Shown one piece after another: positions 19,901 to 50,157 of a stretch of DNA of 64,000 bases; the stretch's first letter is position 1; each line of letters opens with the position of its first letter. The notes under the pieces were generated by a model. It was given only the letters and a program-made list of their open reading frames with translations, had not been told where the DNA came from and made no database searches. Both the position numbers and the translations under genes were made by a program. The stretch is taken from assembly GCA_028015205.1 (NCBI GenBank), contig CM051516.1, forward strand, positions 59,586,230 through 59,650,229, written 5' to 3'. The stretch comes from Mytilisepta virgata (lineage: Eukaryota > Mollusca > Bivalvia > Mytilida > Mytilidae).

Positions 19901-22900
19901 TCTTTTCTTATTTCAAAATATGAACAGGTCACTATATGGCAAATTTGTCAAACATTATTTTCGATTACAGATTCTTCCTAATATTGACTGTGACCACTGT
20001 GTAATTCGCGCACGTTACAATCCCCACAAGCCAGGGGAGACAACATTTTACCAGTGTGCTGATATCAAAATAAAGAAGACAGAAGGCTCTTCATCTACAA
20101 AATTATTGTCATCTCTCCCACCATTGTCACAAGATCTTGACCCTCAGTACCAGACTGTAAAAAAGAAATTCCGGATGTTGAAATACAAAAATAGAAATGG
20201 TCCTTCAATAGATAATGCCTACCTGGTTGGTTTATCACACAGTAACTTTGAACGATCAATCGTAAATATGGTGAACATTTCTTTGGTGACTGGTTATCCA
20301 TATGCAGAACGTCAGTACAACTTGAACATTGCAATTTCAAAACGAAATTTTCAGAAACAGAAAAGTCATCATTTTGTTGCAGGCGGGTCCGGTACCACTA
20401 ATTATATAAATGATGCTGTTGGTGCAATTAATACGAAGGGTAACGTAGTTAGTTTAATTCATTCGGGTGAACCTGATATTGTAGCTGACATTTTCGTAGA
20501 ATTCGATTTGGGCTTTCAAGGACTAATAAGACAGTCAGCAATACTGTCAAATGTTGGAGCACCTGTCAATGCCGTTTTGCCATACGATGATAATAAATAC
20601 TATGTTTTTTCAATACAGGAAGCCGATAAAGAAGGTATGTATGAACATCAAGTTTAGAGTAAAACCATAATATCTTGATAAAACTATGTTTACTTTCGGG
20701 TACTAATTTGAAATGAAGTGTTCCACACTACCCAGTCTTAAAATTTGACAGTTCCATTTCAAACTATAGATGAAACTTCTTTTATCAAAAAATGGATTTC
20801 TTTTAGTAATTTGTTCGGCTCAAGTTAATAATTTATACTTTATTAATTAACTAGTATTATTGGCTTCAATACGACTAAAACTGTCCTTTCACTACAGATC
20901 ATTTACTCGGCCAATATAGAAAAACCCGGCCAATACAGATTTTTTTGCTGTATTGGCCGACTTGTACACAGCCGATATAGGGTGAGTCGTATTTCTCTAG
21001 ATTTTAGTTAAAATACATATGAAAACTCCAAAATGTTTACATTGTATCTAAATTTATACATGGTCTGTGATTATAGATTATCCAGTAATAGATCTGATTA
21101 AAAATATATTTCACAGCCCTCATTCAAATCCTTCAATGACTATACTTATGAATTTTCAAAAAAAAAAAAAAAAAATTCATACAGATATGCATTGTGAAAA
21201 CCAGTTAATTAATAAAGATATCATTACATAGTTGTTTCTGCATTGGCCTTGAATAGGTCCTCGGCAAATCTTTACAATATTTTTTGTCACGAAGTTTGAA
21301 AAATTGCTTATCGTTGAAAACCTTGCATAAACTTTCAATAAGAAGAATGGCATTGAAACCCCTGTTCACGTGTGTTTTTTTTTGTATTATTTTTCCGGTT
21401 TTCTCATGTACTTATTATCCCCGCATCCGTTTGTTTAAACTTTGGTTGATACAATGAATAATTTTGTATTTCAGGTCAATACATTTTTGTAATTGGTAAC
21501 ATGGTAATGCAGAATCCTCTCACGTGTGTTTATACTCCTGTAATAAAATCAAAGGCGGAAAATTTATATGTTAACTTTCAGTGGGCAGAGTATGATCCTA
21601 CAAGAAATTGTATATATATTCTAATGGGAAACGAGAATTCACCGGACGAGTTGTTGGCAAGGATTTACACTTTTAACCTCTATAATCAGTAAGTACCTGT
21701 TAGTGTTAAAAACAACACCCACCATTTCATAGATGTTCCAATTTTAAAAATTTAGGAGCTATTGAATTTTATTCAATTTCTGATTTGTCGAAATAAACGT
21801 GTAGCAGTATACTGAATTAGCTCAGGAATAAATGGTTTGCGTGAAGAACAACAGTATATACTTATTGACTGGGTATGAGCTGAGGGGAATAGTAAGTTTA
21901 TTGTCCCCTCGATACCAACTATTGCCCCGAGGGGTAACCAAGAGATACCAACTATTGCCCCGAGGCGTAGCCAAGAGATACCAACTATTGCCCGAGGCGT
22001 AGCTAAAGGGCAATAGTTGGTATCGAGGGGACAATAAACTTACTATTCCCCGAATATGCAGTCAATAAGTGTTTTATTATACCGAAACACTTTACTGGTC
22101 AATAGTTTTCAGTACTAATCATCGGTCATTATTTACCAGTGAATTGTTTTGGAAACTAATAACCAGTAAAATTAGTGTCTCGATTTTTATATAGAAAAAA
22201 CATAATGAGGTATAATAATATGTACTATTCCGGTATATCATGAAGTCTCTGACAATCATAACTGATATACGTTATATTTTGTACATATGCTGGAATGTAA
22301 TAGACATGTCCTAATTTCTCCCTTATTATCAATATCTTTTCCAGATCATACGTGGTGACTGAAGTAAATGTGAGCCAATATAATCATTTTTGTCATTGCA
22401 TTGTTTATTTCTCCCTTACAATCAAATATCTTTTTTCAGATCATACGTGGTGACTGAAATAGACGTGAGGCAATATACATTCATGTCAATGCATGTCGAT
22501 CCTAAATCAGGTATTATTAAAATAACCACTTAATCTTTCCTTCTATGTATTATATTGTATTTTTAAAGAAATGAATGGATTTGGTGATGAAGTCTTAGTT
22601 TTGACATAGTGATAATGTGTATATTATATAACATGTAAAACAAACGGTATCCTCTTAAGTTTCTGGAGTGTTGATAACCTCCATTAAAACTAAAAAATAT
22701 ATCAAAATGTCTGCAAGAAAAACTAACATACAACCAGGGAAAACTAATGTTTCATTATTTAGACATCAAAAACAGTAAATGGGGTAATTTACAGATTAAA
22801 ATCTATGCCTTTTCAAAAGACTTGCATGTTATTTTTAGGAAAAGTATTTGCAGTGTCACCTGGATTGTTCTATGGCTCAAATACAGAATGGTTTTTAATT

Positions 22901-25288: not shown

Positions 25289-25973
25289 TTTTGGCCCTTG
25301 CCCCGAAGGAGGAAGAAATAAAACGGGGGTCTGAGCATGTCATGGTCCGAGACATTCCAACACTTGCCGGGCGTGTTGGTTGTGCAATGTGTAGGATTTT
25401 TTAAAAACAAATAATGATGAAAATAAAGCAAAATAGTATATTAAGTTTTCCAGGATCCAAGATCGGAGAATCTAATTGTTTGATCACAAACAAGTATCTA
25501 CAAGGACATAATTCTATATCTGCATCTTTTCTATATATGATTTACAAGATAGATATTTTTTTTTGGCATATTCATAATAAATAAAAAAATCTAGGAATCA
25601 GATCCCTTGTTCATAAATTATCTTGTTTTATTCCTAAAGCATAATATATAAAGACTATAATTAGTCAGTTCGAAGAGGCAGCTGGCGCCTCCAACTCAAT
25701 AGAATTTACGGCCATGAAATCCATAGTAAAGTAGGTGTCACAACTCAACTGACATTAGCAGTTTACAATTTTTTTTATCAACTATCCTTAGTTAATTGTA
25801 TAACCTGTTGCTTAAAGTTCGTTTTCTGAGTTTTAAATATAATTCACAAAATATGGCTGAATAAAATTACAAAAATTATATAACTGAAATTTAATATAGA
25901 ACCTCTTTTCTTATTTCAAAATATGAACAGGTCACTATATGGCAAATTTTCCAAACATTATTTTCGATTACAG

Positions 25974-28900
25974 ATTCTTCCCAATATTGACTGTGACCAC
26001 TGTGTAATTCGCGCACGTTACAATCCCCACAAGCCAGGGGAGACAACATTTTACCAGTGTGCTGATATCAAAATAAAGAAGACAGAACGCTCTTCATCTA
26101 CAAAATTATTGTCATCTCTCCCACCATTGTCACAAGATCTTGACCCTCAGTACCAGACTGTAAAAAAGAAATTCCGGATGTTGAAATACAAAAATAGAAA
26201 TGGTCCTTCAATAGATAATGCCTACCTGGTTGGTTTATCATACACTAACTTTGAACGATCAATCGTAAATATGGTGAACATTTCTTTGGTGACTGGTTAT
26301 CCATATGCAGAACGTCAGTACAACTTGAACATTGCAATTTCAAAACGAAATTTTCAGAAACAGAAAAGCCATCATTTTGTTGCAGGCGGGTCCGGTACCA
26401 CTAATTATATAAATGATGCTGTTGGTGCAATTAATACGAAGGGTAACGTAGTTAGTTTAATTCATTCGGGTGAACCTGATATTGTAGCTGACATTTTCGT
26501 AGAATTCGATTTGGGCTTTCAAGGACTAATAAGACAGTCAGCAATACTGTCAAATGTTGGAGCACCTGTCAATGCCATTTTGCCATACGATGATAATAAA
26601 TACTATGTTTTTTCAATACAGGAAGCCGACAAAGAAGGTATGTATGAACAGCAAGTTTAGAGTAAAACCATAATATCTTGATAAAACTATGTTTACTTTC
26701 GGGTACTAATTTGAAATGAAGTGTTCCACACTACCCAGTCTTAAAATTTGACAGTTCCATTTCAAACTATAGATGAAACTTCTTTTATCACAAAATGGAT
26801 TTCTGTTAGTAATTTGTTCTTCTCAAGTCAATAATTTATACTTTATTAATTAACTAGTATTATTGGCTTCAATACGACTAAAACTGTCCTTTCACTACAG
26901 ATCATTTACTCGGCCAATATAGAAAAACCCGGCCAATACAGATTTTTTTGCTGTATTGGCCGACTTGTACACAGCCGATATAGGGTGAGTCGTATTTCTC
27001 TAGATTTTAGTTAAAATACATATGAAAACTCCAAAATGTTTACATTGTATCTAAATTTATACATGGTCTGTGATTATAGATTATCCAGTAATAGATCTGA
27101 TTAAAAATATATTTCACAGCCCTCATTCAAATCCTTCAATGACTATACTTATGAATTTTCAAAAAAAAAAAAAAAATTCATACAGATATGCATTGTGAAA
27201 ACCAGTTAATTAATAAAGATATCATTACATAGTTGTTTCTGCATTGGCCTTGAATAGGTCCTCGGCAAATCTTTACAATATTTTTTGTCACGAAGTTTGA
27301 AAAATTGCTTATCGTTGAAAACCTTGCATAAACTTTCAATAAGAAGAATGGCATTGAAACCCCTGTTCACGTGTTTTTTTGTATTATTTTTCCGCTTTTT
27401 TTAAGTACTTATTATCCCCGCATCCGTTTGTTTAAACTTTGGTTGATACAATGAATAATTTTGTATTTCAGGTCAATACATTTTTGTAATTGGTAACATG
27501 GTAATGCAGAATCCTCGCACGTGTGTTTATACTCCTGTAATAAAATCAAAGGCGGAAAATTTATATGTTAACTTTCAGTGGGCAGAGTATGATCCTACAA
27601 GATATTGTATATATATTCTAATGGGAAACGAGAATTCGCCGGACGAGTTGTTGGCAAGGATTTACACTTTTAATCTATATAATCAGTAAGTACCTGTTAG
27701 TGTTAAAAACAACACCCACCATTTCATAGATGTTCCAATTTTAATAATTTAGGAGCCATTTTGTCGAAATAAACGTTTAGCAGTATACTGAATTAGCCCA
27801 GGAATGAATGGTTTGCATGAAGAACAACAGTATATACTTATTGACTGGGTATGAGGGGAATAGTAAGTTTATTGTCCCCTCGATACCAACTATTGCCCCG
27901 AGGCGTAGCTAAGGGGCAATAGTTGGTATCGAGGGACAATAAACTTACTATTCTCCGAATATGCAGTCAATAAGTGTTTTATTATACCGAAACACTTTAC
28001 TGGTCAATTGTTTCCAGTAGTAATCATCGGTCATTATTTACCAGTGAATTGTTTTGGAAACTAATCATCGGTAAAATTAGTGTCTCGATTTTTATATAGA
28101 AAAAAACATACTGAGGTATAATAATATATATTATTATACCTTAGATATATTTTTCTATAATAAATACATGCACAATAATTTCACTATTTTTAACATTTTC
28201 AGTGATTTAACTATTTTCCCCGGTCACCGGTCAATAGTTTCCAAACTATTTTCCCTCAAAAAACTATTTTCCCTCTTCAAGTTACGTTGTTTCGCGGATT
28301 TTTAATCCCGGGCACGGGATTGGCTGGGAGGTTTTAGCCGACCCGTTCGGAAGCTCCCGCGTTATAGGTTATCGTCAATGCTGAATCCCGAGATGTTCCG
28401 GTACGTCTTCAAAGTATTTAGAAAAAGGGATATGTCATGGTGAGAACATGAATTTAAAAAAAAATAATGGACTCTGTCACTCGATCATGCATCTCGGGTA
28501 CGTACACATGACTTAAATTTTGCCTTAATTATCTCTTGTGTTTCTTTCGGTATAATAAAACACTTACTGACTGAGTAGTCGGGGAATAGTAAGTTTATTG
28601 TCCCTCTGAACAACTATTGCCCCTCGGCGTTGCCTCGGGGCAATAGTTGTTCCTCGGGACAATAAACTTACTATTCCCCTCTTACTCAGTCAATAAGTAT
28701 ATACTATTCCGGTATATCATGAAGTCTCTGAGAATGATAACTGATATACGTTATATTTTGTACATATGCTGGAATGAAATAGACATGTCCTAATTTCTCC
28801 TTTATTATCAATATCTTTTCCAGATCATACGTGGTAACTGAAGTAAATGTGAGCCAGTATAATCATTTTTGTCATTGAATTGTTTATTTCTCCCTTACAA

Positions 28901-37400: not shown

Positions 37401-39008
37401 TGAATTCCATTATCATAAAAGCAAAGGGTTTAAAACTGAATCTTTTTTATATTATTTTGCTATTTTTTTTTTACTATTATTTTTATATATATACTTATTT
37501 ATGTTCCTTTTTTTTATATATTTTCAAAATGTATTTATTGATGTTATTATTTGTTTTAAGGACATTTGCAGATACGATAGGATATGATACCTTAAGTTGT
37601 TATTTAAAAGAAAAATAATTTTACATTATGATCTAATAATACATTGCAAAATTGATTTCACATATTGAAATAAATTTATTCCAGTGTAACAACTTATCCT
37701 AGGAAAAACATTTTTGTCACGTTATTTTTGGCCAATTTTTAACTTTGTGTACATCACACATTATATATCTATTATTCTCATTTTTTATCACATAGGATAC
37801 AACATGCGTCTGTGTATTGTTGATGGCAAACAAGGCAATCTGAAGGCAGTGCTTGTTCCCATTGAGATATGTCATTATAGCTAGTGAATGTTGTATTAAT
37901 CTTGTCAATTTTTGCAACCACTAGAATATACAATCTCTTCACTTGTGACTTCCTAGTACAAAAGACAATTTTTACGTTACAAATAATTTGAACTTAATTC
38001 ATGAATTACAATGAGCGTTCAAATTACCTGGAAATCTATTCAAAACAGTTACTTTTATATTTTAGCAATATGTTATTAGATTTAAAATTAATTTAGACAA
38101 TTGGGAAAATTTACCATTTTAAAATACGCAAATTTAAAAAAATGATTACTTATTTACAATTGATTATATATATGAAATGTACGCATTTTATAACTTCAAA
38201 TTTCCCCATTATAAATAATTTTAGATGCCAATACTCACAGTTTTAGAACAAACAATATATACATGTAATAAAGCATAGATGTTACAAACAATGCAAAGTA
38301 AAATGTCCAAAAGTGTCACTAATAGAAATACCGGTATAATATTATTGTTTATAAATCCTCAGCACTTTTGATGGTAATATACATGTTAATGTTCTGGAAC
38401 TGGAATAATAAATGTCCGAAATATGAACAACAAATCCAAAACAAACAAATGTTCAGTATCATATTGCAAATATTGATGTAAAGATGCTAAAAATGTCCTG
38501 TCCTTATGATGTTACGCGTGATGTTCCATTGCACCTTTGATGTCCAATTGGATAGATGTAGTTCCATTGGGCCAGCTTTAACGGTCTCCACCAATTCTTA
38601 TAAAAAAAATATGATGAAATGATATAAAAAATAGGGGAACTGTCTCTGGATGTTGTGAAGCTTGGTTTTGCCATGCCAGATAAAGGAATGCCCGGTAAAA
38701 GCCTTACCTGGTAAGAATGACGCACGTAGAATTAATATTATCAGATTTAGTCAGTATTAGTTTAATAGCGGTCATTCTTTGAAGTATATAGTTTAAGTAG
38801 CTTGTCCATGTTCGACCTGGGGCACTGTGTGTATTCAAAATATGTCAACAGATAAGAGCAATTATATCAAATATAGTAAAGGTTAAAAGTTCAAATATTA
38901 TATCAAATATAGTAAAGTTTAAAAGTTCAAATAATATTTTCATTCAAAAACAAGAACAATTTATAATTTTAACTGAACGTATTGTACACGGAATTTTATG
39001 TTACAATA
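34478..39008 (+). mobile_element. Nested 4.53-kb non-autonomous element of tandem ~2.06-kb units in gag
   Basis: The insertion is flanked by a 5-bp target duplication GGACT (34,473-34,477 and 39,009-39,013). Inside, a ~590-bp terminal-type repeat occurs three times (34,478-35,065; 36,537-37,126; 38,597-39,008), and between them the same ~1,470-bp internal segment occurs twice (35,066-36,536; 37,127-38,596). The layout is therefore repeat-internal-repeat-internal-repeat. The last repeat has lost ~178 bp internally. No open frame encodes a recognisable protein. Ends are CTTATAAA… and …TTACAATA, not TG…CA, and there is no convincing primer-binding site or polypurine tract. An LTR-like or Penelope-like non-autonomous element is the best guess. 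Confidence 0.8.
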
Positions 39009-39016
39009 GGACTACT

Positions 39017-42000
39017 ATGCTGCAAAGTGTTTTTGTGGGCAAGGCCGCTGAAATTTACTCAGCTCTTTCTTCAGAAAAAAGTTCTGATTATGACACTGTT
39101 AAACAGGAAGTTTTGAAAGCTTATGAGCTAGTGCCAGAAGCATATAGACAGAAATTTAGGTCTTATAAAAAGTTTGAAACACAAACCTATGTTGAATTTG
39201 CTAGGGAAAAAGAAGATTTATTTGATAAATGGCTTACGTCAAAGAAAATAGATAAAAATTTTGATAAATTAAGACAATTAATATTATTAGAAGAGTTCAA
39301 GCAGTGTGTTAATTTAGACTTAAAAACACATTTAGATGACAAAACTGTTGAGACATTGCAAGATGCAGCTGTTGTTTCCGATAATTATACCATTTCACAT
39401 AAAAGAAGTTTCAAAGGTCAAAATTTTAATACTTCATGCGGAAATTACAAAAATCAAAGCACTGAGCGTACTGATATTAAGCCTGTTGCACAGAATAAGA
39501 GTCCGTCTAGTTATAATATGTCTGGTCCAAAGTTTGATACTTTTGAGAAGAAGTCACTAACTTGTGCTTATTGTAAGAAAAATGGTCACCTGATGGCTGA
39601 TTGTTTTAGACTCCAGAAGAAGAATGAAAGAGATCATAAGCCCAAGTCCAGTGCTTGTACGACACCCGTTTTTACCAATAAGTTGGAATGTCCTGCGAGT
39701 CAGGCTTTTAAGTCCAGTTTTTGTGATTACATGGAGGATTATCAACCCTTTATGTCTGATGGGTTTGTTTCTATTGTTAATAATACTACTCCTCAGCCTA
39801 TTAAGATTTTACGGGACACTGGAGCTTCTCAGTCTTTGTTGTTAGAAGGCGTGTTGCCTTTGTCCGAGGAGACGTCCGTTGGTGCCTCCGTTTTGTTACG
39901 AGGTGTGGAGTTAGGTTGTATAGATGTTCCCCTCCATCGTATTTATTTGAAGTCAGATTTAATTACTGGACCAGTTGTTGTGGGTGTTCGTCCTACTCTC
40001 CCCGTTGAGGGTGTTTCATTGTTGCTAGGAAATGATCTAGCTAGGAACAAAGTGGTTGCTGAACCAATTGTTACAAGTGAACCGGTGGTGGATGTTAAAT
40101 CACCTGAAGATGATGCTGAACTGTATCCAGCTTGTGTTGTTACTAGGGCAATGGCAAGAAAACAACAAGATGAGACTTTACAAGAAGGCCGGTATGATTA
40201 TATGGACCTTTCTGACACTTTCTTTGCCGACATTGAAGGTCCCGGTAGCTCAGAAAAGGCCATAATCAGACCACCTGGTACTAACAAACGTGTAATTATG
40301 CCATGGCCAGACGTGAATAGCCATTCATTAGACAAAAGAACATTTAGGGAAGAACAGAATAAAGACCCTGAGGTTCTTCAGCTCTGCAAGAGGGCTCTAC
40401 CCCAAGAAGAAGCAGACAAAGTGGCCGAATGTTACTTCCATCAAGACGGCATTTTGATGAGGAAGTGGAGGCCCCCTGATGCTATCCCAGAGGAGGAATG
40501 GAGAGTGGTATACCAAGTGGTGGTGCCTAAAGTCTATAGGCAAGAAATTATTGGTCTTGCCCATGACACCCCCTTGGCTGGACATTTAGGTATAAGGAAG
40601 ACTTGCCTTAAGATATTACAACATTTCTACTGGCCCAGACTTAGAAATGATGTCACAGAATACTGCAAATCATGCCATATATGCCAGGTTGTTGGCAAGC
40701 CTAACCAGAAAATACCACCAGCACCACTTCTGCCAATTCCAGCCTTTGAAGAACCTTTCAGCCGAGTACTTATTGATTGCGTTGGACCTTTACCAAAGAC
40801 CAAGACTGGAAATGCTTATTTATTGACGATCATGTGTACATCCACTCGCTTTCCTGAGGCTATTCCCTTAAGGAATATCAAGACACCAACTATTGTCAAA
40901 GCTCTTATCAAATTTTTCACATTAGTAGGACTTCCTAAGTCTATACAGTCCGACCAGGGTTCAAATTTTATGTCAGGTTTATTTCAACAGGTCATTTACC
41001 AGTTAGGGATTTCTCAGTATAGATCAAGTGCTTATCATCCAGAATCTCAAGGTGCCTTAGAACGTTTTCATCAAACATTGAAGAACATGATTAGGACTTT
41101 TTGTCTTCAATTTGACAGGGACTGGGATGATGGTGTTCACTTTCTACTTTTTGCGGTCCGAGAGGCTGTTCAAGAATCCCTTGGTTTTAGCCCCTTTGAG
41201 TTAGTGTTTGGTCATACTGTAAGGGGACCTTTGAAATTGATTAAGGAAAAATGGCTTACTGAACACACTGACTTGAATCTTCTAGACTATGTATCTAGAT
41301 TTAAAGAAAAATTGTATACTGCTTGTCAAATTGCTCAGAATAACTTAAAAACTGTACAGAATAAGATGAAAATATGGTATGATAAAGATGCCAGGGACAG
41401 AGTTTTTGAGCCTGGTGATAAGGTACTTGTATTTTTGCCAGTCCCTGGGCATCCGTTACAGGCTAAATACTGTGGTCCTTATACCATCGAGAGTAAAATC
41501 AATGATTTGAATTATATTGTAAAAACTCCAGGTCGGCGTAAACAAAATAGAGTGTGTCACATTAATATGTTAAAACCATATTTTGAACGTACTAATGAAG
41601 GTGAGAGTAAACCAGTTGCCACTTTAGCCATGGTTAATTTGGAGAACGATCATGACAAACCAGACATAACTGAACCATCTTTTGATTCCAAGACTGTGGA
41701 ACAAACTGTTAGATTGAAAAATTCTGAAATTTTATCAAATTTGGACTCAAAACTTGCACATCTGACTTTCGATCGCAGAGAAAAATTGAAAACTTTGGTA
41801 TTTTCTTTTAAAAATCTTTTTCCAGATGTGCCAAACAAAACTACTGCTGTTTGTCATGATGTTGATGTAGGCGATGCTTCTCCAATTAAGCAACATCCTT
41901 ACCGGCTCAATCCACTTAAACTTGATGTTATGAGACAAGAAATTAGATATATGCTTGACAATGATATTATTGAGCCGAGTGACAGTGAATGGAGCTCTCC

Positions 42001-43138
42001 TTGTCTTCTTGTACCCAAACCAGATAAAACCTTTCGTTTCGTTACTGATTTCAGAAAAGTAAACTCAGTCTCAAAATCTGAATCCTATCCGATTCCAAGG
42101 ATAGACGATTGCATTGATAACATTGGACAATCAAAATTCGTAAGCAACTTTGATTTATTAAAAGGTTACTGGCAGGTCCCCCTGACACCGAGAGCTCGTG
42201 AAATATCAGCTTTTGTCACACCAGACGGCTTATTTCAATATACTGTCATGCCGTTTGGTATGAAAAATGCTCCAGCTACATTTCAAAGAATGATTAACAA
42301 TGTTATAAAAGATTTAGACTGTTGTTCTGGTTATATTGATGATCTTATTGTATGTAGTGATAGCTGGGAAGAGCATTTAACACATTTATATGATACTTTT
42401 GACAGATTGTCACAATCAAATTTGACTGTTAATCTTGCTAAAAGTGAATTTTGTAAGGCCACTGTTGATTATTTAGGGCACACAGTTGGCCAAGGTCAAG
42501 TGAAACCTATTATGGCTAAAGTGGATGCAATTACCAATTTTCCTCCTCCTACAAATAAAAAACAACTCATGAGATATTTAGGCATGATTGGATTTTACAG
42601 AAAATTTTGTTCAAATTTTGCTACTGTTGTTCAACCATTGACTCATCTTTTACGAAAAGATTCTAAATTCATCTGGAGTGATAATTGTCAAAACTCTTTT
42701 GAAAAAAGCAAATCACTTTTAATTAACAGTCCCGTTCTCATCACTCCAGACTTTAAAAAGCAATTCAAACTTGCCGTTGATGCAAGTGATGTAGGAGTTG
42801 GAGCCGTTTTATATCAAGAAACAGATGATAATGTTGAGAAACCTATATCATATTTTTCCAAGAAGTTAGATAAACATCAGAAAAATTATTCCACTATTGA
42901 AAAAGAATGTTTTGCACTGTTGTCTGCACTTCAACATTTTGATGTATATTTAAATCCCACTATGCATCCTATTCTAGTTTATACTGATCATAATCCTCTC
43001 ACCTTCATACATAAAATGAGAAACAAGAACCAGAGGTTGACTAGGTGGAGTTTATTGTTACAGGAATATGATATTATTGTAAAACATATTAAAGGTAAAG
43101 ATAATGTAATAGCAGATGCTTTATCTAGATCTTATTAA
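39017..43138 (+). CDS. Gag C-terminus and Pol polyprotein: protease, integrase, reverse transcriptase, RNase H
   Basis: 1,373 codons without interruption from the first ATG after the nested insert. Domains: rest of Gag capsid region (1-135); zinc knuckle CAYCKKNGHLMADC (~183-196); retropepsin with DTGAS (~267); integrase His-Cys zinc finger (GHLGIRKTCL…CKSCHICQ, ~515-560); DDE core with LIDCVGP (~586), QSDQGSNF (~646) and GALERFHQ (~681); GPY/F-type module (KYCGPYTIES, ~815); reverse transcriptase with FDLLKGYWQVPL (~1044), FGMKNAPATFQ and YIDD (~1106); RNase H with AVDASDVG (~1254) and YTDHNPLTF. All catalytic residues I can check are present, so the enzymes look functional even though Gag is broken upstream. 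The start codon is a consequence of the insertion. Natively this was one long gag-pol frame. Confidence 0.92.
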   Translation: MLQSVFVGKAAEIYSALSSEKSSDYDTVKQEVLKAYELVPEAYRQKFRSYKKFETQTYVEFAREKEDLFDKWLTSKKIDKNFDKLRQLILLEEFKQCVNLDLKTHLDDKTVETLQDAAVVSDNYTISHKRSFKGQNFNTSCGNYKNQSTERTDIKPVAQNKSPSSYNMSGPKFDTFEKKSLTCAYCKKNGHLMADCFRLQKKNERDHKPKSSACTTPVFTNKLECPASQAFKSSFCDYMEDYQPFMSDGFVSIVNNTTPQPIKILRDTGASQSLLLEGVLPLSEETSVGASVLLRGVELGCIDVPLHRIYLKSDLITGPVVVGVRPTLPVEGVSLLLGNDLARNKVVAEPIVTSEPVVDVKSPEDDAELYPACVVTRAMARKQQDETLQEGRYDYMDLSDTFFADIEGPGSSEKAIIRPPGTNKRVIMPWPDVNSHSLDKRTFREEQNKDPEVLQLCKRALPQEEADKVAECYFHQDGILMRKWRPPDAIPEEEWRVVYQVVVPKVYRQEIIGLAHDTPLAGHLGIRKTCLKILQHFYWPRLRNDVTEYCKSCHICQVVGKPNQKIPPAPLLPIPAFEEPFSRVLIDCVGPLPKTKTGNAYLLTIMCTSTRFPEAIPLRNIKTPTIVKALIKFFTLVGLPKSIQSDQGSNFMSGLFQQVIYQLGISQYRSSAYHPESQGALERFHQTLKNMIRTFCLQFDRDWDDGVHFLLFAVREAVQESLGFSPFELVFGHTVRGPLKLIKEKWLTEHTDLNLLDYVSRFKEKLYTACQIAQNNLKTVQNKMKIWYDKDARDRVFEPGDKVLVFLPVPGHPLQAKYCGPYTIESKINDLNYIVKTPGRRKQNRVCHINMLKPYFERTNEGESKPVATLAMVNLENDHDKPDITEPSFDSKTVEQTVRLKNSEILSNLDSKLAHLTFDRREKLKTLVFSFKNLFPDVPNKTTAVCHDVDVGDASPIKQHPYRLNPLKLDVMRQEIRYMLDNDIIEPSDSEWSSPCLLVPKPDKTFRFVTDFRKVNSVSKSESYPIPRIDDCIDNIGQSKFVSNFDLLKGYWQVPLTPRAREISAFVTPDGLFQYTVMPFGMKNAPATFQRMINNVIKDLDCCSGYIDDLIVCSDSWEEHLTHLYDTFDRLSQSNLTVNLAKSEFCKATVDYLGHTVGQGQVKPIMAKVDAITNFPPPTNKKQLMRYLGMIGFYRKFCSNFATVVQPLTHLLRKDSKFIWSDNCQNSFEKSKSLLINSPVLITPDFKKQFKLAVDASDVGVGAVLYQETDDNVEKPISYFSKKLDKHQKNYSTIEKECFALLSALQHFDVYLNPTMHPILVYTDHNPLTFIHKMRNKNQRLTRWSLLLQEYDIIVKHIKGKDNVIADALSRSY

Positions 43139-43828: not shown

Positions 43829-43916
43829 ACCTCTACAGAGCATGTAATTAATCTTTCCTTTAGGATGCTGCCTCAATGACAGCGACAGTTTAACAAACTT
43901 TGTTCAACTAAAGAAG

Positions 43917-44112
43917 TGTAGTAGATTTTGGGTAATTAGTGAGACCCAAACGGAAAACGTTAACCGTCCCACAATGCATCTCTCTCTTGCTTGCATCCAT
44001 CTTAGACGAACAGACACAGAAATCTATAGACACAGATCTTGATTAATCCTACTCCAAGGAGAGAAGATTAATGCCAGAAACTAAGGTAAATTAATTAGTT
44101 GACCTTACAACA
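43917..44112 (+). repeat. 5' LTR of the Tpt1-bearing element
   Basis: 196 bp with TG…CA ends, short for a gypsy-class element. No obvious TATA box in the LTR. Confidence 0.9.
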
Positions 44113-44114
44113 TC

Positions 44115-44132
44115 TGGCGCTGCGAGCACATC
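44115..44132 (+). promoter_or_regulatory. Primer-binding site
   Basis: TGGCGCTGCGAGCACATC starts two bases after the LTR and opens with TGG, the complement of the universal tRNA CCA end. I cannot name the cognate tRNA from memory. Confidence 0.6.
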
Positions 44133-44876
44133 GTTCTTGCACGGTCGGAATAAAGATATTTTTCACTTTGAACCGAGTGTGAATTGGCGGCTGTTTCCCG
44201 CCATACCCAAATTGTAACTTTTGATAGTTTAACGGTTTTTTGTGGCATCTAACATATCGGTGCTGCACAAAATCATTAAAAATTAATTGGGGTTTTACGA
44301 TTATACCGGGAAACCCCAGTTAACTCCAAATTTTTCCCGTTTTGTGAATTTTTTCTGTGTCGTCACAAGTTTGCAAGGAGAGCCTGTCGAGGGAGTCTTT
44401 ACTTACCAGATTCCCACGATAGTTATATTTGGAATTTTGGGATTTACTTGACTTACCAGTAAATCCCAATAGCCATATTTTCAATTTCATATTCCGAAAT
44501 ATTTAATTTATCGGTATTTTGGACTATTTTAATTTTGTGTACAACTGGTGTTTTTGAGATTGTACCTGGGTTTAACAGATACATCTACTGACCAACTTTT
44601 ATTTGTAATTTCCCAGAGTTATCTAACTTATCGGTATCTCTGTGGTATACAGTACATAGTTTCAGGGTTTTTACGAGTTATCTTACTTACCGGTACTCGT
44701 CATAAGCCCTGATTTTTTGTCACATATCCCGACATATAATAAATATTTGCAAGAACACCGCGGCATTTTTGAAGAGCACAGAAGAAGAATACAGAAGAAG
44801 TGTTGTTTTTTATTTAAATAAATAGTGTTTGTCAGTTACTAATTACAATTACTATTTGGGGCTGGTATTCTTCACT
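44133..44876 (+). other. Long 5' leader of the Tpt1-bearing element
   Basis: About 740 bp without a long frame, before the gag ATG. It contains four or more variants of a motif with TTTACTTACCAG, TTATCGGTATT and CTTACCGGTACTC (44,400-44,700). Such repeated motifs could be packaging or structural elements, or splice-donor-like decoys (…TTACCAG on the plus strand is an acceptor-like sequence). Function unknown. Confidence 0.4.
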
Positions 44877-46988
44877 ATGTCTAATATTTTTATTAACACC
44901 TGCTCCTATGAGGACTTATTACAGCTCCCGGGTATTGGCCCAAAAATTGCGGAGCAAATCATGGCCATAAGGGAGGTGGAGGGATCATTAAGGGAAGAGG
45001 ATTTAGCCAGGGTCCCCCATCTTAGAATAACACCGGATCTTTTGAGCAGGCTGGACTTCTCTCAGGGGGAAGGGAACCCAAGGGTTATGGATGGACAGGG
45101 ACAGCCGGTAGACCATCCATATTGGGACCAGGGGCTGGGATTTCCTACCATGGGAGCCCAGGGAGGCCTGACCAGGCAGGGGGCAGGAGATTATCAACGG
45201 GACAAGGCTCCATACCCAGTTAAACAGGAATCTCAAGGACCACAAACCCCATACCACCAATACATGGGGGGAGGAGATATGGATTCAGCTTTCATTGAAT
45301 ATGAGCTTAACAGTGATTCGGGGGGACCATACACTGATAACCACACCCCGTATGTCGATCAGTCAGGGTGGGGTCAGAGTAGTATGTACACAGGTGACCG
45401 GAAATATCAGTTTGGGGACCCTCCACAGCAAAGGGCTAGTAGATATCAAAACAACCCATATGATAATTCCAGCAATACGGAACACGGGGAGATGGATTGT
45501 AAAAATCAATATGATCAAAGGTGGGAGGCCAAGGTCTACAGGGGGGCCGGAAAGTTGCCCTACAGCACACAGGCCCAGTGGGACAGGGACAAACATATGC
45601 CACTGGGGTTAGGACAAGATAGTTTGGCCAGGGATCGGGCGGATAAATTGAAGGGATATAGTACACCACACCCAAGTAATGGGGGGCCAGTGGGGGCACC
45701 CCAGGGAACACCCATGGAATACACGCAGGGTAATAGGAGTGCAGCTCAGGGGCAGGGCCTTAGAATTGAATCTTCGGTAGGGCCAATAAGAGGGATAACA
45801 GAAACACCCAGGAGTAGGTTTAGTAAGTGGCAGCAGAGCTATCCTCTGACACAGGGTCCGGGGAGGGGGATGAGGCCCATGGAATGCCCACCCCAGACGT
45901 TCAGGGGGCAAGTGGAGGACTCGGTTTATCGCCCTTTCAATACCACACAATGGGAAAACAGGGGCCCAAGAGACCAAAGAGACAAGTGGGGTAGGGGGTA
46001 TGGACCTGGATATCAACAAGGGCCAAATAAGTATGGGCCGAGGGGAGATAATCGACAGGTAGCAACACCCACAATTGAGCCAGAGCCAAGCAAAAGACCC
46101 AACGCTACCCCGAAAAATCTGAAGTATGATGGGAAAACTAACTGGCAGGCATTCTTCACGAAATTTTCCCGATATTCAGAGGTCTGTGGTTGGGGGCCCC
46201 AGGAATGCAAGGACCAATTATGCTGGTGTCTAGAGGGGAAGGCTAGTGAGTATTATGCCCTCATAGCTGAACGTAATAGGGAAGTAGGATACTCAGAACT
46301 AGTCCAGAAATTGGAAAAACGCTTTGGGTTTAAAGAACTCCCGGAAACTGCACAAGTCCAATTTCAAAATGCCCGCCAAAATCAAGAGGAGTCCCTGGAA
46401 GACTGGGCGGATAGGGTGTTATCACTGGCTACCAGGGCTTTTCGCGAGCTCCCGGAAGAACACATGTACCAACAGGCTGTGTTAAGGTTGTGCCAGGGGG
46501 CGGCTGATAAGGAAGCGGGTAGTGCTGCCTCTAATGTTCGCCCCAAAAGTATTGAGGATGCCGTGGATAAGATTAGGTGGCATCAGCATAACCACCAGGC
46601 TATCTATGGGAAGCCCTCAAAAAGGGAAATTCGACACGTCGAATATGTTGGTGAATATAGGGATGGCATGCTCACACCACAAGTGTGTGCTACTGTTCTG
46701 CCCCAGAGGGGTGGGAGAGTCTCCGGGAAGATAGAAATGGCCACAATGGAAAAACGTCTGGATAAGGTGGAGGGCGTTGTGTCAGAATTGCTGACTGAAC
46801 TGAAGAAACTGAATGCCCAGGGGCGTCCCCCGGTAAGAAGCCCTTCACCCGGGAGGACTGAATGCTATCATTGTGGGCAAACAGGCCATTTTAAACGTGA
46901 ATGCCCGAGTCTCCAGGGAAGGGATAAGGTTGTTAGTTTTGCAGACCAGGTAGTTGGGTTACATTTAAACAAGAAAGGGACCGCTTAA
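44877..46988 (+). CDS. Gag polyprotein with N-terminal helix-hairpin-helix domain
   Basis: 703 residues from ATG 44,877. The longer frame upstream starts at a TTG and is not used. Residues ~4-60 match the ComEA-type helix-hairpin-helix fold: FINTCSYEDLLQLPGIGPKI, then IMAIREVEGSLREEDLARVP. This module binds DNA or RNA without sequence preference in bacterial competence and repair proteins. Residues ~60-400 are Gly/Gln/Pro-rich and disordered. Residues ~410-575 form a retrotransposon Gag capsid domain (KYDGKTNWQAFFTKFSRYSE, SEYYALIAERNREVGYSELV, LEDWADRVLSLATRAF). A zinc knuckle CYHCGQTGHFKREC lies at ~663-676. The stop at 46,986 is bypassed by the -1 frameshift signal just upstream. Confidence 0.88.
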   Translation: MSNIFINTCSYEDLLQLPGIGPKIAEQIMAIREVEGSLREEDLARVPHLRITPDLLSRLDFSQGEGNPRVMDGQGQPVDHPYWDQGLGFPTMGAQGGLTRQGAGDYQRDKAPYPVKQESQGPQTPYHQYMGGGDMDSAFIEYELNSDSGGPYTDNHTPYVDQSGWGQSSMYTGDRKYQFGDPPQQRASRYQNNPYDNSSNTEHGEMDCKNQYDQRWEAKVYRGAGKLPYSTQAQWDRDKHMPLGLGQDSLARDRADKLKGYSTPHPSNGGPVGAPQGTPMEYTQGNRSAAQGQGLRIESSVGPIRGITETPRSRFSKWQQSYPLTQGPGRGMRPMECPPQTFRGQVEDSVYRPFNTTQWENRGPRDQRDKWGRGYGPGYQQGPNKYGPRGDNRQVATPTIEPEPSKRPNATPKNLKYDGKTNWQAFFTKFSRYSEVCGWGPQECKDQLCWCLEGKASEYYALIAERNREVGYSELVQKLEKRFGFKELPETAQVQFQNARQNQEESLEDWADRVLSLATRAFRELPEEHMYQQAVLRLCQGAADKEAGSAASNVRPKSIEDAVDKIRWHQHNHQAIYGKPSKREIRHVEYVGEYRDGMLTPQVCATVLPQRGGRVSGKIEMATMEKRLDKVEGVVSELLTELKKLNAQGRPPVRSPSPGRTECYHCGQTGHFKRECPSLQGRDKVVSFADQVVGLHLNKKGTA

Positions 46989-47006
46989 GAGGCCGGAGTG
47001 GGTCCC
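46964..47006 (+). promoter_or_regulatory. Programmed -1 ribosomal frameshift signal
   Basis: The heptamer TTTAAAC (46,964-46,970) is in the correct phase (T TTA AAC in the gag frame). A 6-nt spacer AAGAAA is followed by GGGACC (46,977-46,982), which pairs with GGTCCC (47,001-47,006) across an 18-nt loop that includes the gag stop codon region. The -1 frame is open from 46,928 onward and leads into the Tpt1-protease frame. A slip here gives a Gag-Tpt1-protease fusion. A pseudoknot with downstream bases is possible but not shown. Confidence 0.85.
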
Positions 47007-49480
47007 CGGATAGTGGAGAGGGTCTCAGTAGGGAGAATTTGGTGGATGAAGGTACCCCACATGTGAGGGGGGTGGACGAGGACGTAGTTGAGGACAGCAT
47101 TGAGGGGTGTGAAACAGTAGAAAATAGGCTAGGGAAGGACAATTTGTTATCTAGGACCCTGGCATACATTCTTCGACATGGGGCAGTTAAGTGGGGATTG
47201 CAGATAGCCCCAGGGGGTTATGTTGAAGTACGGGAATTGTTAGAAAAACATCCTGGGATGCAAGGTTTTAACACAGAGGATGTACTAAGGGTGGTAAAAA
47301 AAGAAAATCAGGCTTTTCAGTATAAACAGGAGGGGGATTCTGGGAGTATCAGGGTTAGGGCAACACAGGGACATTCTTTTCCTTTTGAGAATCCTGAATT
47401 ACAATTGATTGAGGCAGGGGATGCTCCATATTGTCTATACTTTACAACATCCTCTGCATGGGAGGGAATAAAGGAAGCAGGGATCAACCGGATGAAAAGA
47501 GTATATGTGCCCTTGTATAGGAATTTCCCAAAGACATTAAAACCACACTGGGAATTGGCCCTAGGGATAGATGTTGTGAGGGCCCAGGCAGAAGGGTATC
47601 CATTCTATCAATCACAGGATGGATTAGTTCTGTGCCCAGGTAACTCTGAGGGTTGGCTGCCATTAAAGTTTGTAGTCAGTGTGCAAAAACTAAGCACATG
47701 TGAATTTCTTAGCCCGATTGAATGGGATGCAGGGAAAGAGACAAGATCAGTGGAAGGTACAGATGATCAGTGTGACCCCAGTGTAGCTAGATCCTGGGCA
47801 GAGGAGGTTATAGGGGAAGGTTTTTTCAGTGAGCCGCCCTGGGAACCGGGTGGACAGGGAGTCTCTGCAGATGAAGAGGGTGAGCGGAAGGTGGACCCAG
47901 GTGAAATTGGGGAGGTAAACCCCCAGAAGGAGAGGGTAGATACAGGAGACCAAGGGGAGGGATCTGATAATTCAGAGATCGATGTCACACTCACAGAACA
48001 GTCCCAGGAGTGTGAGGAAGTTGAAGGTGTTGTCACTATTTGTCGAGTGCGGAATGGGATGGCTCTTCGGGTTCCCCTTCAGTTAAATGGTAAAAGCATG
48101 TATGCAGTAGTGGACACGGCGGCAGAGGTTACCTTGATTTCTGAGGAAGTATATAAATCCTTGGACATAGTTACCCCAAAAATTAGGGAGGTTATCATGA
48201 ACACAGCAGGGAGGGGGTTACAGATGAATGGGTTTATTGTAGGTCCGGTCGAAATTACATTGGGTACTAGGGAAATCACAACAGATATCTATGTAGCCCC
48301 TATTGAAGATGAAATGCTCTTGGGTTTTGATCTACTGAGAAAACAAGGGGTGGAATTGTATTTAGCAGAGGGTCAGTTAAAAATTGGTCAAGAAAAAGTC
48401 CCCATGACTACAGCCGCGGTGAGGGGTCTAACAGAATCAGCTGATGTAGTAGTGCCAAGGAAAATTAGAGTCCCCCCTAATTCTGTTATGAGGATGTTGG
48501 CCCCGATGAGGGAGTTGTGGGGTGGAGGCCCAATCTTGGAGGGGAGATACCAGGGCATCCCAGGGATCGCCATACCTCTGCATGAGGCGATGGAGATCTG
48601 GTTGGGATTGTCTAGGACTCTGGGTCGAATGCGTACACAGCATCCTGTGGAGATAAGGGAGGCCAACCCAACCCAGAGTGATCCTCCGGGGCTTGAAGGT
48701 GGGTATGGGTTCAAGGGGGAATTTAAGGGCTCCAGAGAAGAAGGGGGCCAATGTCCCGATGACCAGGGATACCTGGAGAGGGTCTCGCTCATAGACCCTC
48801 CCATTGCATCTTGTGGAAGCAGCACGAGATATAAAGAATCCTCCAAAAGCCGAAACATCCGGAGGAAAAGAAGGAGGAGGAGGGAACTGGAACTTTCCCA
48901 GTCCCGAGTCGTCGCCACACGGGAAAGTGTCAATCTAGCTGTGGGGACGTGGGGTCAACCCGTAGAGACCCCACAGCCGGCCGGATGGAGGGAGGCACCC
49001 AGGGGTCTCACCCAAGAGACCCCGGGGCAAAACAGACCCAGGGATCCTGTTCAAGGAATCCCGGGGCTTGGTTCCATTCTAGGGCTCCAGGAATATCTAA
49101 TTCCCTGGTACCCTATTAAGGCCCTAGACATCGACCCACATGTGGTGTTGGTACATGTGGCTGATGTCTTTAGGGATATAGAGGGTGAGAAGTGGAATCT
49201 GTCGTCCGTGAGGTTGACGGCCCTACAAACCCAGGGCTTCAACCTGCTGGGCCACCTGGATGTCATGGCCCTCACCCACAGGGTGAACACCTGGGGTTTA
49301 AGTAGGCAGGTCATCGATAACCTGTCTGCTCAGGGGGCCATGACCATTCTGTGCCGAGAGGGGGAGTGGAAGATTCCTTGGGTTTTCGAGGTGGAGACAG
49401 CCAACTCACCCGCCTCATTGCTGCACTGGCGGGTGCAGGCGCAGGTCATCGGAGCAATGAGGGAAAGGAGGGGTAGGTAG
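46970..49480 (+). CDS. Frameshift ORF: Tpt1/KptA RNA 2'-phosphotransferase-like domain, retropepsin, unknown C-terminal domain
   Basis: Read in the -1 frame; no ATG lies in the frame before the Tpt1-like domain, consistent with frameshift expression. At ~47,120-47,690 the protein matches the Tpt1/KptA family: LSRTLAYILRHGAVKWGL, GYVEVRELL, IRVRATQGHSF, CLYFTTSSAWEGIKEAGI and NRMKRVYVPL. The Arg-His (LRH), Arg (RATQGHS) and Arg (MKR) positions correspond to the known catalytic tetrad. The usual HGT motif is altered (YFTT) and HVHL is VYVPL. The family transfers an RNA 2'-phosphate to NAD. An acidic linker follows, then an aspartic protease (VVDTAAEVTLISEE, LLGFDLLRKQG; ~48,020-48,400), then a PPN-type linker as found before reverse transcriptase in gypsy elements. 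Instead of polymerase there is a basic stretch (RRKRRRRR) and a ~150-residue domain I do not recognise. Confidence 0.85.
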   Translation, partial: QERDRLRGRSGSPDSGEGLSRENLVDEGTPHVRGVDEDVVEDSIEGCETVENRLGKDNLLSRTLAYILRHGAVKWGLQIAPGGYVEVRELLEKHPGMQGFNTEDVLRVVKKENQAFQYKQEGDSGSIRVRATQGHSFPFENPELQLIEAGDAPYCLYFTTSSAWEGIKEAGINRMKRVYVPLYRNFPKTLKPHWELALGIDVVRAQAEGYPFYQSQDGLVLCPGNSEGWLPLKFVVSVQKLSTCEFLSPIEWDAGKETRSVEGTDDQCDPSVARSWAEEVIGEGFFSEPPWEPGGQGVSADEEGERKVDPGEIGEVNPQKERVDTGDQGEGSDNSEIDVTLTEQSQECEEVEGVVTICRVRNGMALRVPLQLNGKSMYAVVDTAAEVTLISEEVYKSLDIVTPKIREVIMNTAGRGLQMNGFIVGPVEITLGTREITTDIYVAPIEDEMLLGFDLLRKQGVELYLAEGQLKIGQEKVPMTTAAVRGLTESADVVVPRKIRVPPNSVMRMLAPMRELWGGGPILEGRYQGIPGIAIPLHEAMEIWLGLSRTLGRMRTQHPVEIREANPTQSDPPGLEGGYGFKGEFKGSREEGGQCPDDQGYLERVSLIDPPIASCGSSTRYKESSKSRNIRRKRRRRRELELSQSRVVATRESVNLAVGTWGQPVETPQPAGWREAPRGLTQETPGQNRPRDPVQGIPGLGSILGLQEYLIPWYPIKALDIDPHVVLVHVADVFRDIEGEKWNLSSVRLTALQTQGFNLLGHLDVMALTHRVNTWGLSRQVIDNLSAQGAMTILCREGEWKIPWVFEVETANSPASLLHWRVQAQVIGAMRERRGR

Positions 49481-49764
49481 GGGGTGTGAACGGGGGGTCG
49501 GGGGCACAGATTGTTCAAGATAATGGGAGGGGGGTAGGAAGGGGTAATAACAATGGTGGGTTGGGGGAAAACAAAAGTGTAGATAATGTAAATATGTTTA
49601 GATTGATCTTTTATTATATTGTGGGAGAGGGGATGTATGGTCGGGTTTGCACCCATGTGGGAGATGGCTGGGGGAACACTTTTGGGGAGAGGATATGGGT
49701 CTCACATAAATCAATTTTATAAATTTAATCTATTTTGGCAGCTTTTTAACAAAACGGGGGGGAG
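49481..49764 (+). other. 3' untranslated region and polypurine tract of the Tpt1-bearing element
   Basis: A G-rich non-coding stretch ending in CGGGGGGGAG (49,755-49,764), the polypurine tract directly before the 3' LTR. There is no room for a polymerase gene. Confidence 0.75.
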
Positions 49765-49960
49765 TGTAGTAGATTTTGGGTAATTAGTGAGACCCAAACG
49801 GAAAACGTTAACCGTCCCACAATGCATCTCTCTCTTGCTTGCATCCATCTTAGACGAACAGACACAGAAATCTATAGACACAGATCTTGATTAATCCTAC
49901 TCCAAGGAGAGAAGATTAATGCCAGAAACTAAGGTAAATTAATTAGTTGACCTTACAACA
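49765..49960 (+). repeat. 3' LTR of the Tpt1-bearing element
   Basis: 196 bp, identical to the 5' copy by eye. It ends 197 bp before the GSKIP start codon. Confidence 0.9.
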
Positions 49961-50157
49961 GAAGTCAGCATAAAATAATATGTATTTGTCATTAAGTTGA
50001 ACAATACAATTTATTCCATTTTCAGTAAAATATCATTGGAACTTCACGTGAACAGTGATTAAGCACTTTGATTTTTTAAAACCTACCTGGTTTGTTCAGG
50101 GTCCGATACTCGAACGCAAATATTGATTGATAAATAACAGAATTGTCTCCCTTTGGA

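What the first reader, a model, noticed from the sequence alone, without database searches (positions are those of the whole stretch)
47120..47690. RNA 2'-phosphotransferase (Tpt1/KptA) domain carried by an LTR retroelement
Seen: motifs LRHGAVKWGL, GYVEVRELL, RATQGHS and NRMKR, in Tpt1 order, lie in a frame flanked by Gag zinc knuckle and retropepsin, inside identical 196-bp LTRs. Known: Tpt1 enzymes use NAD to remove RNA 2'-phosphates, some also ADP-ribosylate RNA 5' ends, and catalysis needs an Arg-His-Arg-Arg set. Inference: the element captured the enzyme at the place where betaretroviruses carry dUTPase. It may process the primer tRNA or virion RNA, or counter or exploit a host RNA-end defence. 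I do not recall a described element of this type, but cannot search.
Basis: partly seen in the sequence, partly recalled or inferred. Interest (0 to 1): 0.95.

Follow-up and report, generated by a model that had tools for sequence, protein, structure and literature searches.

The report
RNA-end enzyme captured by a retrotransposon
A virus-like jumping element in a bivalve-like animal genome carries, between its particle protein and its protease, a copy of a host enzyme that edits phosphates on RNA, and selection has kept that copy, which offers a way to ask what this poorly understood enzyme does in animals.

Summary
Confirmed. Window 43917-49960 is a young Ty3/gypsy-type LTR element (LTRs identical 196/196, 4-bp target duplication). 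A Tpt1/KptA domain (47138-47641; Pfam E 8e-31; human TRPT1 E 1.5e-25; AlphaFold model pLDDT 86) lies between the Gag zinc knuckle and the protease, reached by a -1 shift at TTTAAAC. This copy lacks RT, RNase H and integrase: about 3.9 kb is missing and the protease frame runs into a 3' ORF. The genome holds 28 further-or-own element-type Tpt1 places besides the host gene; five have RT, and one shows an open Tpt1-PR-RT-RH-IN-PHD frame. Mytilus mussels have diverged relatives. Trees fit one capture from an animal-type TRPT1; the intron-bearing host gene lies elsewhere. [quoted passage not shown] Against ordinary chemistry: the NAD-contacting HGT motif reads YFT here, and most Mytilus elements have Lys at the third tetrad site. 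Best reading: a particle-borne enzyme acting on the element's RNA ends; activity is untested. Enzyme capture by LTR elements is known; a Tpt1 capture by one was not found in the searches made.

The parts
43917..44112 (+). 5' LTR, 196 bp, TG...CA
   Evidence: identical to the 3' LTR 196 of 196
43913..43916 (.). target-site duplication GAAG, left copy
   Evidence: sibling copies have TTAA and CTAA
44115..44129 (+). presumed primer-binding site beginning TGGCGC, 2 nt after the LTR
   Evidence: sequence; no matching tRNA found
44877..46988 (+). Gag frame, with N-terminal helix-hairpin-helix (44889-45023), capsid-like PNMA match (46197-46445) and CCHC knuckle (46863-46910)
   Evidence: Pfam HHH_3 2.7e-8, PNMA 2e-6, zf-CCHC 1.3e-6; ATG read
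46964..46970 (+). presumed -1 slippery heptamer TTTAAAC in the 52-nt Gag/Tpt1-PR overlap
   Evidence: kept in 22 of 24 places that align; no unusual downstream fold
46937..49480 (+). second frame: Tpt1, linker, protease, then ORF3-derived part; open, 847 codons
47138..47641 (+). Tpt1/KptA domain; tetrad codons R 47174-47176, H 47177-47179, R 47357-47359, R 47498-47500; YFT in place of HGT at 47438-47446
48074..48340 (+). retropepsin-type aspartic protease (DTA)
   Evidence: gag-asp_proteas 1e-8, Asp_protease_2 1.7e-6
48490..48493 (+). deletion junction: about 3.9 kb with RT-RH-IN-PHD absent relative to RT-bearing siblings
48491..49480 (+). part related to ORF3 of RT-bearing siblings, Arg-rich; no Pfam match
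   Evidence: also resembles the C-terminus of Mytilus protein P0006
49751..49764 (+). polypurine tract
   Evidence: sequence
49765..49960 (+). 3' LTR
49961..49964 (.). target-site duplication GAAG, right copy

Best explanation
A lineage of Ty3/gypsy-type LTR elements in bivalves captured, once, the spliced coding sequence of an animal TRPT1 (Tpt1/KptA) gene into the linker between nucleocapsid and protease. SHOWN: domain, position, fold, tetrad, other copies, single-clade origin, purifying selection. INFERRED, likely: the domain is made only as a minor Gag-Tpt1-PR(-Pol) fusion by -1 frameshifting at TTTAAAC, so it enters the particle with the genomic RNA (about 0.75). INFERRED, less sure: inside the particle or assembly body it acts on ends or 2'-phosphates of the element's RNA, most simply putting ADP-ribose on 5'-monophosphate RNA, which for human TRPT1-type caps blocks XRN1 and translation, or clearing 2'-phosphates that would stall reverse transcription (NAD chemistry on RNA about 0.45; the ADP-ribose cap in particular about 0.2). 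The window copy is a shorter member that lost RT-RH-IN, kept Gag-Tpt1-PR and is presumably mobilised by RT-bearing siblings.
For: Domain and fold. Copies: 35 match rows = 29 places by my merging, of which one is the host gene and one a 28-aa scrap. Five places have RT at 97-100%; the C19 copy has Tpt1, PR, RT, RNase H, IN and PHD in one 1802-aa open frame, searched in pieces. Mytilus proteins P0001-P0004 have Tpt1 plus protease; P0005 has part of Tpt1, protease, RT and RNase H. Tpt1 tree: 9 element rows one clade (100/98; 100/100), next to the host gene (80/95) inside animal TRPT1 (81/93). Protease tree: the 10 Tpt1-bearing rows fall together (94/96) with P0006, whose gene model starts at the protease. 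Host TRPT1 on C11 has at least 5 exons. dN/dS window against L013: Tpt1 0.22 (0.12-0.40), PR 0.13, Gag C-part 0.09, linker 0.43; window against RT-less L007, L008, L010: Tpt1 0.28-0.33, upper bounds 0.61-0.76. Human TRPT1 needs the same tetrad for 5'-phosphate RNA ADP-ribosylation (PMC6582358, passages); ADPr-capped mRNA resists XRN1 and is not translated (PMC9458441, abstract).
Against: No activity, expression or packaging data. In the window family HGT is Y-F-T, R-x-H-x-H is R-x-Y-x-P, and the six residues around SGMR are missing; in Runella Tpt1 the His/Thr double Ala mutant kept 4% product and R137A lost activity at low NAD (PMC6333775). Most Mytilus rows have Lys at the third tetrad site and P0002 lacks His and the fourth Arg. 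No significant fold downstream of the slippery site (z 0.37). Host-to-element branch support is moderate (80/95).
Confidence: 0.6

Rival explanations
1. The domain has lost NAD chemistry and serves as an RNA-end or RNA-phosphate binding module, or as a structural spacer of the Gag-PR fusion.
For: HGT to YFT, HxH to YxP and loss of the SGMR stretch all lie in the NAD lobe; Mytilus rows with Lys at the third tetrad site.
Against: The fourth tetrad Arg, in the NAD lobe, is kept in 20 of 22 rows and Thr of HGT in 22 of 22. The NAD lobe is itself under constraint: dN/dS 0.21-0.30 in five comparisons, upper bounds 0.55-0.74. A mere spacer should look like the linker, 0.43, though the intervals overlap.
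Confidence: 0.27
2. The enzyme is active but turned on host molecules: a counter-defence that alters RNA ends or nucleotide signals made by host innate immunity, or that uses up NAD.
For: Free-standing Tpt1 genes occur in DNA viruses: 22 IMG/VR loci and three sawfly baculoviruses (PMC3230848, passage), so viral use of Tpt1 outside splicing is plausible.
Against: No direct evidence; the Gag-linked, low-yield expression favours action inside the particle.
Confidence: 0.15
3. The domain processes the primer tRNA or repairs tRNA-derived primers.
For: Classical role of Tpt1 in tRNA splicing (recalled; PMC6333775 passages); a TGGCGC primer site is present.
Against: Two pattern searches of the genome for a tRNA ending to fit the site gave 0 matches, so the primer is not even identified; knockout mouse cells splice tRNA normally (PMC6582358 passage).
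Confidence: 0.08
4. A chance or assembly join of a TRPT1 pseudogene to one element copy, with no role.
For: None found.
Against: 22 of 22 close protease loci have Tpt1 beside them; other species carry it; dN/dS well below 1.
Confidence: 0.01

Closest known systems
Animal TRPT1 / Tpt1 / KptA (PF01885)
   Same: fold, Arg-His-Arg-Arg tetrad, winged-helix plus NAD lobe
   Different: encoded inside an LTR element between Gag and protease; no introns; YFT for HGT; six residues fewer at SGMR
Betaretroviral dUTPase in the pro frame (recalled)
   Same: captured nucleotide/nucleic-acid enzyme directly after a -1 frameshift and before the protease
   Different: enzyme family unrelated; host and element lineage different
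Bdelloid rotifer LTR elements with DEDDy exonuclease, GDSL esterase or dUTPase (PMC5408684, passages)
   Same: LTR elements that captured enzymes
   Different: exonuclease and esterase there are separate ORF3s and showed no significant departure from neutrality; no phosphotransferase in the main text (0 occurrences)
Insect LTR elements with viral SF1 helicase, chromodomain elements (PMC6338049, first of four parts)
   Same: accessory domain in a retroelement polyprotein
   Different: other domains; helicase there from RNA viruses, here from an animal gene
KptA/Tpt1 of sawfly gammabaculoviruses (PMC3230848, passage) and of IMG/VR DNA-virus contigs
   Same: Tpt1 carried by a virus; the baculovirus one close to an insect protein
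   Different: free-standing genes in DNA viruses, not fused to a retroelement polyprotein

Membership tests
Tpt1/KptA protein family (sequence and fold) | PF01885 match above the curated cut-off | tested here: met
   107.9 bits against 26
Tpt1/KptA protein family (sequence and fold) | two-lobed Tpt1 fold | tested here: met
   pLDDT 86.3; Foldseek 7yw3 TMq 0.81, TMt 0.86
Active Tpt1 enzyme | Arg-His-Arg-Arg tetrad | tested here: met
   window has all four; among window plus L002-L022: R24 20 of 22 and H25 20 of 22 (rest stop or missing), R85 22 of 22, R132 20 of 22 (one K, one S); eight broken or fragment rows L023-L030 left out of this count
Active Tpt1 enzyme | HGT motif contacting NAD adenosine | tested here: not met
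   Y-F-T in the window family; H-C-T, H-Y-T or H-Y-N in Mytilus rows; HGT in the host gene
Active Tpt1 enzyme | NAD-dependent 2'-phosphate transfer or 5'-phosphate ADP-ribosylation | not testable with these tools
   needs purified protein
Ty3/gypsy-type LTR element | LTRs TG..CA, target duplication, polypurine tract | tested here: met
   TTAA and CTAA duplications in two siblings
Ty3/gypsy-type LTR element | PR-RT-RH-IN order in the autonomous form | tested here: met
   C19 sibling, pieces of one 1802-aa frame; absent in the window copy
Ty3/gypsy-type LTR element | primer-binding site matching a host tRNA | tested here: inconclusive
   TGGCGC site present; pattern searches 0 matches
Retroviral-type gag-pro -1 frameshift | slippery heptamer in phase within the overlap | tested here: met
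   TTTAAAC, 22 of 24 places
Retroviral-type gag-pro -1 frameshift | stimulatory RNA structure | tested here: not met
   81 nt downstream: z 0.37, 124 of 200 shuffles fold as well; pseudoknots not modelled
Non-autonomous deletion derivative of an autonomous family | shared LTR and coding ends, common internal deletion, multiplied copies | tested here: met
   junction continuous in 14 of 24 loci L002-L025, six stop at or before it, one begins after it, three have no match

The most novel reading that the evidence does not exclude
The element family packages its own NAD-using RNA-end enzyme as part of the particle: it ADP-ribosylates decapped or cut genomic RNA (or clears 2'-phosphates), shielding it from 5' exonuclease and translation so that it is kept for reverse transcription. 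The short subfamily throws away polymerase and integrase, which can be supplied in trans, but keeps Gag, Tpt1 and protease under selection, so the enzyme belongs with the cis-acting packaging functions.
Probability: 0.25. Interest if true: 0.92.

Novelty: new variant of a known kind. Interest (0 to 1): 0.8.

Why it matters
Tpt1 is kept in animals although, as PMC6582358 argues (passages), most lack an obvious source of 2'-phosphate RNA and mouse knockout cells splice tRNA normally. A mobile element that has kept a copy under selection through the divergence of at least two bivalve genomes, and through loss of its own polymerase, says that the enzyme does something useful to a retroelement RNA. 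That is directly testable with one small protein. It also adds an RNA-modifying ADP-ribosyltransferase relative to the short list of enzymes that LTR elements have captured, and shows that mussel genes annotated TRPT1 or TPT1 can be retroelement pieces.

Tried and rejected
Chance motif match: rejected. Single odd copy or assembly join: rejected. Neutral passenger: rejected by dN/dS. Structure-stimulated frameshift: no support. Primer tRNA: two pattern searches, 0 matches. Sister elements with another enzyme at the same place: four upstream stretches of other PR/RT-related elements (L086-L089) gave Gag, knuckle and protease; the stretch before the protease of L088 had no Pfam match and only chance PDB matches, so nothing like Tpt1 was seen there; L089 also held an unrelated RT frame. 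A search of the genome with the ORF3 part did not complete, so ORF3 stays unidentified. Window species: not identified; no Mytilus-like (66%) protease copy appears among the 150 scored hits, which jump from 73-74% to about 53% and below, so it is probably not one of the named Mytilus species.

Limits: the protein search that reached host-type TRPT1 listed 120 of 702 hits, mostly vertebrates, because I put a human fragment in the query; no plant, protist or other mollusc TRPT1 entered the trees. A third Tpt1-like place on C2 (L061; 28-37% identity) is unclassified.

Full report
What is there. The element runs from 43917 to 49960. Its LTRs are identical over 196 bp and flanked by GAAG. Gag (ATG 44877) has a helix-hairpin-helix at its N-terminus, a capsid-like stretch with a PNMA match and a CCHC knuckle. 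The second frame (46937-49480) overlaps Gag by 52 nt, in the -1 phase, and the overlap holds TTTAAAC in phase (46964-46970). After it come the Tpt1 domain, an acidic linker, a retropepsin and a tail without a Pfam match. No RT, RNase H or integrase matched.

Is it Tpt1? Pfam PF01885 E 8.1e-31; human TRPT1 7yw3 E 1.5e-25 by sequence. The AlphaFold2 model (26 rows, mean pLDDT 86.3) finds 21 PDB chains at E <= 0.001, all Tpt1/KptA/TRPT1, best 7yw3. The tetrad Arg-His-Arg-Arg that PMC6333775 (passages and one section) and PMC6582358 (passages) describe as essential is present. The HGT motif that contacts NAD adenosine is Y-F-T here; RxHxH is RxYxP; and a six-residue stretch at the SGMR of animal and yeast enzymes is missing.

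Other copies in the genome. The genome held for the window is 1.03 Gb. A search with the domain gave 35 rows, which I merge by eye into 29 places: one is the host gene on C11, one only 28 aa. A protease search (150 of 625 candidates scored) gave 22 places at 74% identity or more; by eye all 22 coincide with Tpt1 places; a 44-aa scrap at 73% (C12) does not. The RT search (150 of 3573 scored) gave five places at 97-100%, all beside Tpt1 places (L012, L013, L014, L015, L018); the next hits are at 73% or less. Distances from Tpt1 to RT are 306 to 3105 bp, so L012 and L014 are rearranged. L013 (C1) and L015 (C19) have both in one open frame (1218 and 1802 aa). The C19 frame, searched in three pieces, gives Tpt1, protease, RT, RNase H, integrase and a PHD finger. 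The C1 copy has LTRs identical 196 of 196 with TTAA on both sides; the C4 short copy has one mismatch in 195 with CTAA.

The short form. Against L031 and L032 the window copy passes from the end of the protease region directly into ORF3, skipping about 3.9 kb, with a 4-nt overlap at 48490-48493. Of 24 loci (L002-L025) 14 are continuous across this junction, six stop at or before it, one begins after it and three have no match. So one deletion gave rise to a multiplied short subfamily that kept Gag, Tpt1 and protease.

Selection. I took in-frame codons from best tblastn stretches and used Nei-Gojobori counts with codon bootstrap. Window against L013: Tpt1 0.22 (0.12-0.40), protease 0.13 (0.06-0.25), Gag C-part 0.09 (0.05-0.16), linker 0.43 (0.22-0.82). 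Group means between short group A and RT-bearing group D: 0.20 for Tpt1; between short groups B and C: 0.51, the highest. Window against short copies L007, L008, L010: 0.28-0.33 with upper bounds 0.61-0.76. Both lobes are constrained (0.12-0.25 RNA lobe, 0.21-0.30 NAD lobe). Pairs share ancestry and are not independent, and decay after insertion pushes the ratio up. Tetrad positions in 22 rows: 20, 20, 22 and 20 kept; the fourth is K in L007 and S in L016; L023, outside that count, has Q for the first Arg.

Relatives elsewhere. Protein search 1 gave 29 hits; P0001-P0004 have PF01885 with protease, from M. galloprovincialis, an unnamed ENA record and M. coruscus (two); P0005 (M. galloprovincialis) has the end of Tpt1, protease, RT and RNase H. 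One search added P0030 (M. edulis) and P0031 (M. coruscus); one search added P0034, P0036 and P0059. Most Mytilus rows have Lys at the third tetrad site; P0034 has Arg; P0002 has Tyr for His and Glu for the fourth Arg.

Origin. Nine element Tpt1 rows form one clade (100/98; 100/100). With yeast, bacterial and DNA-virus rows added, the clade sits beside the window genome's own TRPT1 (80/95) among animal enzymes (81/93). The protease tree puts the Tpt1-bearing rows together (94/96), with only P0006 among them, whose gene model begins at the protease. The host gene (C11) has at least five exons with AG/GT borders visible and an HGT motif; the element domain has no intron. One capture of a spliced animal TRPT1, then descent within the element lineage, explains this.

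How it works. Position after a -1 shift and before the protease means, if the shift works as in retroviruses (recalled), a minor Gag fusion that travels into the particle. The slippery heptamer is kept in 22 of 24 places, but the sequence behind it folds no better than shuffles. Human TRPT1 caps 5'-phosphate RNA with ADP-ribose through the same tetrad (PMC6582358, passages), and such caps block XRN1 and translation (PMC9458441, abstract). A particle enzyme of that kind could shield genomic RNA and keep it for reverse transcription; removing 2'-phosphates from the template is the other simple role. The altered HGT motif leaves room for a slower or changed enzyme or a binder.

Novelty. Ten paper searches of the held open-access library; some searches asked directly for Tpt1, TRPT1, KptA or PF01885 with retrotransposon, transposon or Mytilus terms. 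From listings and a few passages none described Tpt1 in a retroelement. Subscription papers and preprints are not held. Captured enzymes in LTR elements are known (PMC5408684, passages; PMC6338049, first part), and DNA viruses carry free-standing Tpt1 (PMC3230848, passage). Hence: new variant of a known kind.

Noticed in passing
window 38801-43138: A second, neighbouring retroelement with a 1445-aa frame in the order SCAN-type Gag, integrase, RT, RNase H (integrase before RT, as recalled for Gmr1-like Ty3/gypsy elements).
   Followed up: partly
L032 (sibling on C19), third pol piece: A PHD finger follows the integrase in this family's pol and in related proteins P0010 and P0011.
   Followed up: no
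window 44889-45023; L087: A helix-hairpin-helix motif at the Gag N-terminus, also in a Tpt1-less relative and in Mytilus proteins P0019, P0021, P0026.
   Followed up: no
L086 and L087: Related Tpt1-less elements have Gag and protease in one open frame, without a frameshift.
   Followed up: no
window 48491-49480; P0033: ORF3 of this family is Arg-rich with a tail resembling Mytilus P0006; no Pfam match; function unknown.
   Followed up: partly
G000 C2:22290990-22291181 (L061): A further Tpt1-like stretch, neither clearly host TRPT1 nor element.
   Followed up: partly
window 19827-20657 and 25884-26660: Two near-identical frames of 276 and 258 aa, a duplication; the first has no Pfam match, the second was not scanned.
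   Followed up: no
PMC11817969, table passage: A Mytilus chilensis gene annotated PF01885 is among genes with strong expression change in a transplant experiment; it could be an element copy rather than TRPT1.
   Followed up: no
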